In this document: one piece after another, positions 41,725-54,865 of the stretch
Layout of the letters: every line of letters starts with the position of its first letter
Position numbering within the stretch: the stretch's first letter is position 1
Source of the DNA: Dysidea avara
Taxonomy: Eukaryota; Porifera; Demospongiae; Dictyoceratida; Dysideidae
Length of the DNA: 64,000 nucleotides
Assembly: GCF_963678975.1 (NCBI RefSeq)
Contig: NC_089276.1
Location: forward strand, 744,001-808,000
Direction: 5' to 3'
Notes under the pieces: generated by a model
Database searches by the model: none
What the model saw: the letters and a program-made list of their open reading frames with translations, nothing else
What the model was told of the DNA's origin: nothing
Translations under genes and position numbers: made by a program

Positions 41725-44700
41725 ATGTCAAACTCTACCAAAGCATCGGTAAGCAATGTACTAGATGAAAAGGCTTATCAGTTTGGTTTGTAGGCGCTAC
41801 TCTGTGATGGAGCTACGATATCGCTCTGGTCCAAGTCCCGCGGGATGTTCGTTATTCTGGACGAATCCGGCCATCTTAGCGCAAATGGAAAACGACAGAA
41901 AGCTGGTAAGTGATTTTATTAATCTGTATGACTAAAATATATCCGAGATTGTTATCCTTTTCTATTTAATATGAAATATTTCAGAAATACCTGCCGGCAT
42001 TGCTAAAGGCACGAATTGGCTTATTTTTTTTAAAAGCAAGAAATATGCTGCAGCTAATTTGCTGATTTTTAAGAGTTATAACAATCAACTTTTTTATCAC
42101 CAAGAAAATTGACATCAATATACTCTAATAGAACAGTCAGCCAGCAAATTATTAATACTGAGCAGTCATTTCATTGTTGCTGGGACTCCTCCCTTAATCT
42201 GAATATTTCATAGGACCACAATGTAATTACCAGTTGGAGTGGCCTCATAGGTGTGGTCACCTCAATGGTAAACACAAGGGCAAACCTACTAGCTAATTAC
42301 AGCCACATGCATACAAAGAAGTTGTGGAGATTTACGAAGTTTTTGCAGATAGTTTTTATTGTATTGAAAATTTGTATTCACATATCTTTTCATTCAAAAT
42401 ACGTGTTTCAGATTCGTAATTATCATGAGAAGCAATTCTTGGTGATCAAGATGATACCAAATGAAACACTTGGTATATAGTTCCGGTGAAGCATTCTCGT
42501 GATCCCAATAAGTTATAGTTATATCTCATTACGAGGGTGATATCATTGTTATTACACGAGTCCGAGGCGGAGCCGAAGACGAGTGTAATAACTATGATAT
42601 CCGAGTATACGGGATATAACTATTTTATATCCCAGTGCGCAGGAGTGTGCAGACGTTTACGGATAGTAAATTAAGTTCCAGTTTGAGTTCCTGTCACTGC
42701 TCAAGATTTCATCTGAATTGTGTGGAGATTCTACTTCGTAGCTACAAGAGAGACCTTACATACTGCCTACAAACTGTAGCGAAGGGTGGTGTTATGAAGC
42801 AGCGGTTCCAGGTACGATTCGCCTTTGTCAGAAGTTGGTATGGTGGTGTCGCGTAGTGTGCAAGAGAAAGTAAAGACCAACAAGTGGCTACTGTAGTCCG
42901 AGATAGAACGATGAAGCTAGAGGAAGTTAGTTCTTCACCATAGTGACCGTTGGGAGTGATTGCTGGAGCGAAAATCGTCACGGACTATTCTTGACATTTG
43001 TTAAACTATCGTATTGGTAACTTGTAGTGTTATTGTGTAAAGGATTAACAGTTTTCTTGTAAGATTTAGCTAGTTTAAATGCTGTATTAGTGTGTTTTGT
43101 ATCAATATTTCCTTATTTGGCTCTTTGTTCCATTGGTAAACAATGCCATTCGTGGTTATTATGATGTCACGAACGAGACTGAGTGGCTCCGCAACAGGGT
43201 GATAAGTTAGTTATCACTGAGTGATAACTAATATATCGTACAGTAGCAGCGCCGCTCTGTCTAGCTGTAAGGTAGTTATAACCCAGCGCGGCGCTTTGAT
43301 ACTCCCACGCACTAGATTGATTTGTCATGACATGTTTGGAATGATTTCCCTGCTAGCCTATTGCTGAAGGATTCTAACAAGCCATAGTGAACATGTGTAA
43401 ACTATTGCTAGTCAAAATGTTGCCAAATTTAGGGGGTTAAATTTCTGAGCAAAATAAATGCTGTGTTTTGGCATTGTCTCTGTTTGGCTAGGCCTGACAA
43501 GCGATGCACAGTGAAACTTTAACTCCCTAGAATCAATCCAGCGATTTGCAAAGATTTATTAAAGAAATTTTGTATGTGTGCTAAAGTTGAAATATTATCA
43601 TGAGCTGCCGACAGCGTAGCCAGTCTGTGATGATACCTATTAGCAGAAATGTCCCAAAACCTACAAAATTAAAATAATCAATAAATATACAAGTTGCATT
43701 ATTTGCAGCTGCTTAATTGCTTTGATCTTGATTAGACTTATCACCCTAATTTTGCCATTGCAGGCTTTGCAGTGGACCTCTATTCTCCACTTTGGAGCCA
43801 AACTTCTTGATAATATGGTTGTAAATTTACCAGCTAAGAGCACATCTCTGTGATCATACAGTACGGTAGTACTTTATATTAGGGATCATGGAGAGCGTAA
43901 CCAAGCCCAAAAGTGCCTTCGGTATGATCCTAAAGGCTTCCAATAAATAGTTACGAAATTAAAAGCCTGCCTGTCTGTCTGTCTGCCTACCTGCCTGCCT
44001 GCCTGCCTGCCTGCCTGCCTGCCTGCCTGCCTGCCTGCCTGCCTGCCTGCCTGCCTGCCTGCCTGCCTGCCTGCCTGCCTGCCTGCCTGCCTGCCTGCCT
44101 GCCTGCCTGCCTGCCTGCCTGCCTGCCTGCCTGCCTGCCTGCCTGCCTGCCTGCCTGCCTGCCTGCCTGCCTGCCTGCCTGCCTGCCTGCCTGCCTGCCT
44201 GCCTGCCTGCCTGCCTGCCTGCCTGCCTGCCTGCCTGCCTGCCTGCCTGCCTGCCTGATTCCTACAGGCAAACGTAACTCGATAATGGCTAAGGCTATGG
44301 GCTTGATTTTTTCATCGTTCGACGTTGCTTTGTCCCGAGACGTGCCTTTTGGCACACCGCAGTACGTACAATGCACGCATCATGGACTTACCTTTGTCTT
44401 CCTTTGTGTCCCCATTTCTATTTGCTGACAGCTTAAGGTGTCGATTCGCAGTAGCATGATGCATGGCTTCCCTACAGTATGTTTGTAAATGGGAATCGTC
44501 TGTATTTTCCGTGGTGACTGGACTGATTGCAGAGACGATTCTAACACTGTTCTTCGTTTGTATCGTTGTGTAACATAGTTGAAAGTGAAGCGTAATGACT
44601 GCTGCACTTTTGAGGCAGTAATTATAGTTGGGGGCACACGAATCGTTGTATTTTTGAGGTGACTGGATTGTTGCAGAGGCACTTCTTCTGTTGTTTTTTT

Positions 44701-53700: not shown

Positions 53701-54865
53701 ACACACACACACACACTACACTACACACTACACTACACACACACACACACACTACACACACACACTACACTACACACACACACACTACACACACACACAC
53801 ACACTACACACACACACACACTACACTACACACACACACAAGACACCACAGTTATACACTACACTACACACACACATACACACACACACACACACACACA
53901 CACACTACACTACACACACACACACACACACATACACACACACACACATACAAGACACCACAGTTATACACTACACACACACATACACACACACACTACA
54001 CACACACACACACTACACTACACACACACACACACACAAGACACCACAGTTATACACTACACTACACACACTACACTACACACACACACACACACACACA
54101 AGACACCACAGTTATACACTACACTACACACACACACACACACACACACACACACACACACTACACACACACTACACACACTACACACACTACACACACA
54201 CTACACACATACACACACACACATACAAGACACCACAGTTATACACTACACTACACACACACATACACACACACACACACACTACACACACACACACACT
54301 ACACACACACACTACACTACACACACACACACACACTACACACACACACACACACACACACACACACACACACACACACACACACACATACAAGACACCA
54401 CAGTTATACACTACACACAGTGCAGTTGTACACATGCTTCACTACGTACTTGTATGCACATACACACTACATACCTCACTATACTTGTATGAATATGTTT
54501 ACAGTAGGTAAAGGCTATGTGGCTTTAGAGTCAGTGGAGTATCCAGACTATTATGTTGGCATTAACAAAGATGGCACCTCTAGATCACCTAGTGACACTC
54601 GTCGTGGACGAAATGGCCAATTTTATGTAATTGTCAATCAGGAAGGAGCAGTAGTAAGTCACAACACAGTGTAATAGTCAGTGATAACAGTGTTACCATG
54701 GTTGTTTAGCCTAAACCTGCAAGAACTATTACTCCTGACACTAAAGATGTTACTTCCAACAATAGGGGAGATAACCCTACCGACTACTGGCTCTGGGTGT
54801 TGATAGCTGTTTCCACCGGTTACTGCTGTTATATTCTCTATGATAAGATCAGTGACCAGCAATAG
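41725..54865 (+). CDS. tail-anchored protein with two beta-trefoil-like domains (paralogue A)
   Basis: Ten exons join cleanly: 41725-41748, 41794-41905, 50987-51090, 51169-51211, 51291-51451, 51504-51539, 52571-52676, 53387-53533, 54505-54653 and 54710-54865. The product is 345 aa, starting MSNSTKAS. Two domains (about 9-148 and 161-290) each hold three related strands-and-loops units. Unit 1 is LLCDGATISLW / LLTDGAHVMLLS. Unit 2 is RTDGTVAFQN...KWLRIKDD / KGDGKFSLQS...FLCIKDD then GGxYC.F. Unit 3 is YISLQS...GFLPHTG / YVALES...GINKDG, ending DGQFVVIV / NGQFYVIV. Three-fold units of about 45 residues fit a beta-trefoil (fascin/FGF-like) fold, which is inference. A linker APVQVPIPSGVE separates them. 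The C-terminus has a membrane segment (YWLWVLIAVSTGYCCYILY) and a short DKISDQQ tail. There is no signal peptide, so a cytosolic, tail-anchored placement is likely. Exon 8 (147 nt) equals exons 3+4 (104+43). I do not recognise a named family. Confidence 0.88.
42548..42594. repeat. imperfect palindrome
   Basis: GTTATTACACGAGTCCGAGG and its imperfect complement GACGAGTGTAATAAC lie back to back, inside a CpG-richer block (42540-43300) that looks like an old repeat. Confidence 0.6.
43966..44257. repeat. (CCTG)n microsatellite, about 290 bp
   Basis: About 70 uninterrupted copies of the tetranucleotide CCTG/TGCC follow a short TGTC run. It directly follows a TAGGGATCAT repeat copy (about 43880-43965), so it may have grown from that repeat's tail. 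The long open frame through it is an artefact of the repeat. Confidence 0.95.
44490..44800. repeat. two-unit tandem repeat of about 160 bp
   Basis: GTGACTGGAYTGWTTGCAGA, TTGAAAGYGAAGCGTAATG and CACTTTTGARGCAGT occur in the same order in both halves. The minus-strand open frames here read through both units and show no known motif. Confidence 0.7.
44902..45140. mobile_element. 239-bp foldback element
   Basis: The left arm (CAAGTTTAAGGAAAAATTAA... TAGGGAAACAAGGGAGGT...) is inverted at 45050-45140. It carries a TTAGGGATCATAG block near its outer end. A truncated relative (TATCTGCAGGTGTAGACAAC) lies near 49115-49150. Confidence 0.75.
45931..46027. repeat. hairpin with about 39-bp arms
   Basis: TGTAACACGGGCATGAGGGC... 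and its reverse complement (ending CCTGTGTTACA) enclose an 18-nt loop with only one or two mismatches. No coding role is seen. Confidence 0.8.
46600..46640. repeat. short hairpin
   Basis: GCTACATTTCATATGTAG and CTACATACGAAATGTAGC pair around a short GC-rich loop. Confidence 0.6.
47376..47473. repeat. perfect 49-bp tandem duplication
   Basis: Two identical 49-bp copies starting GAGTAATGTTCTTGTTATCG are directly adjacent. Confidence 0.95.
48257..48933. mobile_element. 677-bp MITE with 9-bp TSD
   Basis: The TIRs start AAGAGTTCATAATATRTGAC and continue for about 75 bp through AAAACCGTCGATATMCGCAC. A 9-bp duplication GACCAAACC flanks both sides (48248-48256 and 48934-48942). The internal minus-strand open frame (48533-48835) has no motif I recognise. 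The TSD length suggests Mutator- or Merlin-like mobilisation. Confidence 0.85.
49690..49830 (-). repeat. dispersed TAGGGATCAT repeat copy
   Basis: On the minus strand it starts GTAGGGATCATGGAAATATG and ends AAACCAAGCCCAAAAG, as in the copy near 43880. Confidence 0.5.
49990..50530. mobile_element. 541-bp hAT-like MITE
   Basis: The ends are TAGGGCTGTACCGACACCGA and, inverted, TAAGGCTGTACCGATACC. The subterminal regions are full of ATCGGTA repeats on both sides, as in hAT elements. The flanking 8-mers CACAGCAT and CACAACAC match at six positions, so the target duplication is only tentative. Confidence 0.6.
50786..50875. repeat. perfect 45-bp tandem duplication
   Basis: Two identical adjacent copies start AGGTAATGAGCTATAGTTTT, about 110 bp upstream of exon 3 of paralogue A. 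Confidence 0.95.
51941..52176. mobile_element. 236-bp pogo-like MITE
   Basis: The termini are CGGTGGAACCTTAGTTATCT and, inverted, CAGTGGAACCTCAGTTATCT, with TA on both sides (51939-51940 and 52177-52178). TA targets and GTGGAACCT ends are typical of pogo/Tc1-like elements. Two copies of the dispersed CTCTATTAGAGTA motif lie inside (52003-52040). The element lies in intron 6 of paralogue A. Confidence 0.75.
53643..54415. repeat. compound CA-repeat minisatellite with higher-order unit
   Basis: About 770 bp of ACACAC/TACACTACAC sequence carries a non-CA insert (AAGACACCACAGTTATACAC) six times at irregular spacing (about 53839, 53954, 54037, 54101, 54228 and 54389). It occupies most of intron 8 of paralogue A. 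The long His/Thr open frames through it are artefacts. Confidence 0.9.

What the first reader, a model, noticed from the sequence alone, without database searches (positions are those of the whole stretch)
41725..54865. Unnamed tail-anchored double beta-trefoil protein, complete gene
Ten exons join without any frame conflict into a 345-residue protein with two repeated domains, each of three related units, and a single C-terminal hydrophobic segment with a short polar tail. There is no signal peptide. I know of no characterised protein with paired trefoil-like domains facing the cytosol on a tail anchor. The gene would not be found from single open frames because most exons are 24-160 nt.
Basis: partly seen in the sequence, partly recalled or inferred. 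Interest (0 to 1): 0.85.

Follow-up and report, generated by a model that had tools for sequence, protein, structure and literature searches.

The report
Tail-anchored double FGF-like trefoil gene
The window holds a well-supported ten-exon animal gene for a protein with two growth-factor-like (FGF-type) folds and a likely membrane-anchoring tail but no export signal, so these folds probably work inside the cell on a membrane rather than as a secreted growth factor.

Summary
Ten exons (41725-54865, +) join with AG/GT borders and consistent phases into a 345-residue protein: two related domains, each of three units, and one C-terminal hydrophobic segment (aa 320-338). Paralogues on the same chromosome support it: G2 (starting in this window at 56374) and G4 repeat the exon plan and the tail; G3 and G5 have four domains and no tail. 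dN/dS is 0.28-0.56 in six comparisons of whole genes or domain pairs, but not clearly below 1 in the tail alone.

The protein is not without a family: it passes Pfam's curated FGF cut-off (38.4 bits against 24; E 1.4e-9). It is not a canonical FGF: two domains, hydrophobic tail, no signal peptide, acidic, no FGF signature (pattern recalled). Best reading: a cytosol-facing, membrane-tethered FGF/IL-1-type trefoil pair that binds a protein partner. Membrane insertion, location and partner are inferred, not shown. The one structure model was too poor to use (pLDDT 39). FGF-like domains are already reported from sponges; the paired, tail-anchored form was not seen in the rows listed by my paper searches. 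The host species was not identified.

The parts
41725..41748 (+). G1 exon 1, start codon, MSNSTKAS
   Evidence: in-frame stop upstream
41794..41905 (+). G1 exon 2, domain 1 unit 1
   Evidence: 112-nt counterpart in G2, G4, G5
50987..51090 (+). G1 exon 3, domain 1 (end of unit 1 and first part of unit 2)
51169..51211 (+). G1 exon 4, domain 1 (end of unit 2)
51291..51451 (+). G1 exon 5, domain 1 unit 3; longer at its start than in G2 and G4
51504..51539 (+). G1 exon 6, 12-residue linker between the domains
   Evidence: same 36 nt length in G2, G4, G5
52571..52676 (+). G1 exon 7, domain 2 unit 1
53387..53533 (+). G1 exon 8, domain 2 (end of unit 1 and unit 2)
54505..54653 (+). G1 exon 9, domain 2 unit 3, aligned to FGF18 and FGF8
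54710..54865 (+). G1 exon 10, tail linker, hydrophobic segment aa 320-338, 7-residue polar end, stop
   Evidence: tail exon found also in G2, G4 and one decayed copy
56374..56406 (+). G2 (tandem paralogue) exon 1, MADFGPYHSAT
56461..56572 (+). G2 exon 2
62929..63032 (+). G2 exon 3
63343..63385 (+). G2 exon 4
63440..63573 (+). G2 exon 5
63625..63660 (+). G2 exon 6 (linker)
63711..63816 (+). G2 exon 7; the gene goes on beyond the window to C5:810198

Best explanation
G1 encodes a two-domain FGF/IL-1-type beta-trefoil protein, made in the cytosol and inserted after translation by its C-terminal segment, so that both trefoils face the cytosol on the ER or a membrane downstream of it. It works as a membrane-tethered protein-binding module, in the manner of the intracellular FGFs (FHFs) that bind channel tails, rather than as a secreted growth factor. 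Soluble four-trefoil paralogues from the same cluster would share or compete for its partner away from the membrane. Shown here: gene model by sequence and paralogues, domain repeats, FGF-family similarity, shared tail exon, absence of a signal peptide, purifying selection over the gene as a whole. Inferred: trefoil fold (from sequence), membrane insertion, topology, organelle, partner.
For: Pfam FGF above curated cut-off; 5 of 10 domains scanned pass the cut-off one by one, including G1 domain 2. PDB profile hits to FGF8 4.5e-7, FGF18 7.3e-7, FGF2 4.9e-5; FGF18 8.6e-7 with the three full-length rows, over domain 2. Same exon plan, start exon and tail in G2 and G4; 13 of the 19 tail-segment residues identical in all 3 tail-bearing proteins. 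In-frame stops upstream of 4 of 4 start codons examined. dN/dS 0.28-0.56 in 6 of 6 comparisons of whole genes or domain pairs, not independent of one another. The tree groups first with third and second with fourth domains, at weak support (77/82), consistent with the four-domain proteins being a doubling of the two-domain unit.
Against: The hydrophobic segment is only moderately hydrophobic (mean 1.41-1.63, with W, Y, S, T, G), and in G1 a stretch inside domain 2 scores 1.39. In the tail alone (42 codons) dN/dS is 0.84, 0.68 and 1.48, so purifying selection on the tail is not shown. G1 domain 1 alone is below the FGF cut-off (13.3 bits against 24), and one family domain (G5d4) has no FGF match at E <= 1. 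The designed trefoils matched descend from FGF1 (recalled), so they are not independent of the FGF similarity. No confident structure (mean pLDDT 39.3), no RNA data, no partner.
Confidence: 0.55

Rival explanations
1. It is a stored, leaderless FGF/IL-1-like ligand (alarmin). The trefoils sit on the cytosolic side and reach the outside by cleavage, flipping or cell damage, then signal to a surface receptor.
For: FGF similarity, strongest in domain 2 of G1; IL-1 and IL-33 models give weak sub-threshold hits; IL-1-family cytokines and some FGFs lack signal peptides (recalled; IL-33 as an alarm signal seen in the start of an abstract in a search listing). Tandem copies, decayed copies and closely similar neighbours would fit a fast-changing defence family.
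Against: Domain 2 of G1 is acidic overall (12 K+R, 16 D+E), unlike heparin-binding FGFs (recalled); the FGF signature is absent in 10 of 10 domains tested (pattern recalled); release would need an unshown step.
Confidence: 0.15
2. It is a membrane-bound relative of fascin: tandem cytosolic trefoils that bundle or tether actin, with four-trefoil paralogues as the soluble bundlers.
For: Two and four tandem trefoils without signal peptide; weak Pfam Fascin hits in 2 of 10 domains and 1 of 3 full-length proteins.
Against: Fascin scores stay below cut-off (14.3 bits against 23.1) while FGF is the best family in 9 of 10 domains. No fascin among the 60 PDB rows shown of 136 or of 120, which excludes nothing.
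Confidence: 0.12
3. The tail is not a membrane anchor but a hydrophobic dimerisation or packing segment, and the protein is soluble in the cytosol.
For: Moderate hydropathy; several polar and aromatic residues; purifying selection on the tail alone not shown.
Against: Length of about 19, position at the very end, charged flanks, and sequence kept in G2 and G4.
Confidence: 0.13
4. The exon chain is not a real gene.
For: No RNA evidence was available.
Against: Ten frame-compatible exons, conserved exon plan in paralogues, score 631 against 60-88 for 12 shuffles, dN/dS below 1 over whole genes.
Confidence: 0.02

Closest known systems
Fibroblast growth factors (Pfam PF00167; FGF8, FGF18 and FGF2 among the best natural PDB matches)
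   Same: Domain of about 125-130 residues scoring above the Pfam cut-off; domain 2 aligns over positions 4-120 of the 124 of the FGF model
   Different: Two domains in one chain, C-terminal hydrophobic tail, no signal peptide, acidic, FGF signature absent (pattern recalled)
Intracellular FGFs / FHFs (FGF11-14)
   Same: FGF-type fold without signal peptide acting on the cytosolic side of membranes (recalled; binding to the cytosolic end of Nav channels seen in the start of an abstract, PMC8059062)
   Different: FHFs are single-domain and not membrane-anchored (recalled)
Sponge 'FGF-like' genes and the Spongilla FGF morpholog
   Same: FGF-like domains outside the cnidarian/bilaterian set are already reported (passages of PMC8224027; passages of PMC10176882)
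   Different: The passages seen mention neither paired domains nor a tail anchor; whether our host is a sponge was not tested
IL-1 family / IL-33
   Same: Related trefoil fold, leaderless (recalled)
   Different: Pfam IL1 and IL33 scores below cut-off
Fascin
   Same: Tandem cytosolic trefoils (recalled), four in G3 and G5 as inferred here
   Different: Pfam Fascin below cut-off; fascin has no membrane tail (recalled)
IP3 / ryanodine receptors
   Same: Paired cytosolic trefoils on a protein with a C-terminal membrane part (recalled)
   Different: Very large multi-pass channels (recalled); not among the families or PDB rows listed here

Membership tests
FGF family (PF00167) | Score above Pfam's curated cut-off | tested here: met
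   38.4 bits against 24 for the whole protein; domain 2 alone 31.0; domain 1 alone 13.3, i.e. not met for domain 1
FGF family (PF00167) | FGF signature (PROSITE-type pattern, recalled) | tested here: not met
   0 of 10 domains tested; so not filed as a bona fide FGF
FGF family (PF00167) | Single trefoil without membrane anchor (recalled; one conserved central domain per passages of PMC3420111) | tested here: not met
   Two domains and a C-terminal hydrophobic segment
FGF family (PF00167) | Binds heparan sulfate and FGFR | not testable with these tools
   Acidic net composition of G1 domains speaks against heparin binding
Beta-trefoil fold | Three related units per domain | tested here: met
   Unit-unit profile matches, probabilities 51-88%; match over profile positions 9-127 of 132 to a designed symmetric trefoil, E 9.6e-10
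Beta-trefoil fold | Predicted structure superposes on known trefoils | tested here: inconclusive
Tail-anchored membrane proteins | One hydrophobic segment within about 30 residues of the C-terminus, no signal peptide | tested here: met
   aa 320-338 of 345, 7 residues after; upstream stops. Hydropathy is moderate
Tail-anchored membrane proteins | Post-translational insertion, N-terminus cytosolic | not testable with these tools
   Needs an insertion assay
Fascin | Pfam PF06268 above cut-off | tested here: not met
   14.3 bits against 23.1 in the two domains that match
IL-1 family | Pfam PF00340 above cut-off | tested here: not met
   Best 12.3 bits against 25
Ricin-B lectins | Pfam RicinB_lectin_2 above cut-off | tested here: not met
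   16 bits against 25.6

The most novel reading that the evidence does not exclude
An animal lineage, possibly an early-branching one, uses FGF-type folds as membrane-anchored intracellular binding modules, in pairs, with soluble four-fold versions made from the same gene cluster. Intracellular use of the FGF/IL-1 trefoil could then be as old as, or older than, its use as a secreted ligand.
Probability: 0.2. Interest if true: 0.75.

Novelty: new variant of a known kind. Interest (0 to 1): 0.5.

Why it matters
According to a passage in PMC8224027, secreted bona fide FGFs arose in the cnidarian/bilaterian ancestor, while FGF-like domains occur more widely. A set of FGF-type domains that lack an export signal and carry a probable membrane tail bears on what these domains did before, or apart from, FGF signalling, and it gives a concrete protein family to test.

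Tried and rejected
An extra exon at 42214-42251 was considered and dropped: exon 2 joins exon 3 in phase without it. Lectin, fascin and IL-1 membership were tested and scored below cut-off. NCBIfam, a bacterial and archaeal library, gave nothing at E <= 0.1 for 3 proteins. Bacterial or archaeal relatives were looked for with the two-row alignment A4: 79 pattern matches, none confirmed as a relative; such a scan finds close relatives only. A search of the own genome with the Pfam FGF model gave 18 matches, 0 above the cut-off, one of them exon 9 of this gene; it works exon by exon and misses split domains, so it does not show that canonical FGFs are absent. Fascin is absent from the PDB rows shown (60 of 136, 60 of 120), which excludes nothing. 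The fold search on a poor model is not used as evidence. Papers: searches (15 of 225 rows listed; 2 of 2 listed) show no tail-anchored FGF-type protein by title and abstract start; PF00167 plus sponge gave 0 papers; listings gave none either. The host could not be identified: the COX1 searches did not complete.
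Full report
GENE. All nine introns are GT-AG and the phases are consistent; the product has 345 residues. A spliced-alignment script, given the protein from residue 46 on and window 50500-55000, returned the same borders for exons 3-10, apart from its open first end (50986) and the stop codon. The second intron is about 9 kb, so the gene would indeed be missed from single frames.

DOMAINS. Domain 1 (about 9-148) and domain 2 (about 161-291) align over their whole length (score 170; 500 shuffles: mean 27.8, maximum 57). Each consists of three related units, at moderate probabilities of 51-88%. 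The profile of ten family domains matches designed three-fold symmetric trefoils (best 9.6e-10), which descend from FGF1 (recalled), then natural FGF8 (4.5e-7), FGF18 (7.3e-7) and FGF2 (4.9e-5). The single sequence finds FGF18 (0.0015) and FGF8 (0.0038). Pfam names the family: FGF, 38.4 bits against a cut-off of 24. Ten domains were scanned one by one, of the 16 assembled; the six left out (G3d1-d4, G5d1, G5d2) are near copies of those scanned, and decayed copies and partial matches were not assembled. Of the ten, 5 pass the FGF cut-off (G1d2, G2d2, G4d2, G6d1, G6d2), 4 hit below it (G1d1, G2d1, G4d1, G5d3) and 1 (G5d4) has no hit at E <= 1. In 9 of 10 the best family is FGF.

TAIL AND START. 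The last exon ends with YWLWVLIAVSTGYCCYILY followed by DKISDQQ. In G1 this is the most hydrophobic 19-mer (1.41), only just ahead of a stretch in domain 2 (1.39); in G2 and G4 it stands out more (1.63 against 0.80; 1.55 against 0.99). Thirteen of its 19 residues are identical in G1, G2 and G4. A genome search with the G4 tail (8 matches at E <= 1) finds it in G4, G2, G1 and one decayed copy at C5:3,024,000, plus two weak matches on other contigs, E 0.40 and 0.53. The start exon is 24 nt in G1 and 33 nt in G2, G4 and G5; in-frame stops precede the start codon in 4 of 4. In G1 the previous open frame, a CAAP1 homologue, ends 175 bp upstream.

FAMILY. All listed matches of G1 (49 at E <= 1, its own exons included) and of the more distant G6 (29 at E <= 1, its own included) lie on contig C5. 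Cluster 1 (about C5:785-825k) holds G1, G2 (two domains plus tail, C5:800374-810198) and G3 (four domains, no tail); a decayed copy follows at 834-838k. Cluster 3 (C5:3.02-3.05M) holds a decayed G1-like copy, G4 (two domains plus tail, 3030290-3038520) and G5 (four domains, no tail). The triplet thus appears duplicated about 2.2 Mb away. In G3 and G5 the first part of the tail linker (PDPN...) is kept and is followed in phase by the next trefoil exon, so the anchor part of the tail is absent and two more trefoils follow; they end ...QFYPILVRYGVL and a stop. That these four domains form one transcript is inferred from phases. The first exon of G3 is uncertain (a candidate at C5:814130 would need a GC donor). 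Further copies near 1405k and 1447k carry in-frame stops in the spliced reading. G6 (minus strand, about 1594-1589k) has two domains followed by a long Pro/Tyr-rich open stretch.

SELECTION. Simple counting (Nei-Gojobori) gives dN/dS 0.56 (G2-G4), 0.30 (G1-G2), 0.33 (G1-G4), 0.39 (G3-G5 first half), 0.28 (G3-G5 second half) and 0.31 (G3 first half-G2); dS is high (1.4-1.7) in the two G1 comparisons. In the tail alone (42 codons) dN/dS is 0.84 (G2-G4), 0.68 (G1-G4) and 1.48 (G1-G2), with dS 0.13, 0.39 and 0.22. For G1-G2 that dS is far below the 1.69 of the whole gene: the tail exon may have been exchanged between genes more recently than the rest. This was not tested further, and purifying selection on the tail is not shown. 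The first half of G3 is closer to G2 (dS 0.13) than to G5 (0.29), and the tree pairs G2d2 with G3d2, G4d2 with G5d2 and G4d1 with G5d1, but leaves G2d1 and G3d1 unpaired: largely what exchange within clusters would give.

TREE. Sixteen domains split into first plus third and second plus fourth domains, with both G6 domains on the first side, at weak support (77/82) and with long branches for the G1 and G6 domains, whose places are unsure.

MECHANISM. Two FGF-type domains without export signal, and a terminal hydrophobic segment, make a cytosol-facing tail-anchored protein the simplest reading. The trefoils then serve as a binding module at a membrane, as FHFs do at channel tails (recalled). 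The four-trefoil paralogues without tail would act in the same pathway in solution. Which membrane, which partner and which process are unknown.

KNOWN WORK. [quoted passage not shown] Passages of PMC10176882 report a Spongilla FGF morpholog found by structure comparison and FGF-pathway genes in pinacocytes. Passages of PMC7260276 favour a eumetazoan origin of FGFRs. Passages of PMC3420111 describe FGFs as small proteins with one conserved central trefoil domain. Searches for tail-anchored trefoil or transmembrane FGF-type proteins gave nothing of this kind among the rows listed (15 of 225; 2 of 2). A 2014 paper on FGF origins, cited in the passages as Bertrand et al., was looked for under a recalled DOI and is not held; it may describe such genes.

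Noticed in passing
38629-40209 (-): Single open frame for a sulfatase with the SGSH C-terminal domain (heparan sulfamidase-like) close to the FGF-like cluster; probably coincidence.
   Followed up: partly
40371-41549 (+): CAAP1 (caspase activity and apoptosis inhibitor 1) homologue ending 175 bp before G1.
   Followed up: partly
33454-38001 (-): 1515-aa open frame, coiled-coil-like by eye, no Pfam family above its cut-off.
   Followed up: partly
15160-19325 (+) and 56764-61734 (-): Two retrotransposon-like regions (BEL/Pao type by eye, recalled); the second lies inside intron 2 of G2. Observed only.
   Followed up: no
42349-42465: Piece of a dispersed repeat in intron 2 of G1, 79-83% identical to 39 other places among the 40 scored of 120 candidates.
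   Followed up: no
G6 side, C5:1589090-1587400 (-), read: The two G6 trefoils are followed by a long open stretch of SYPQPPVA-type Pro/Tyr-rich repeats.
   Followed up: partly
window 54710-54865 against the G2 and G4 tails: Tail of G1 and G2 has much lower synonymous divergence than the whole gene (0.22 against 1.69): possible exchange of the anchor exon between paralogues.
   Followed up: no
about 43984-44257: Long tract of a 4-base repeat (CTGC) inside intron 2 of G1, seen by eye.
   Followed up: no
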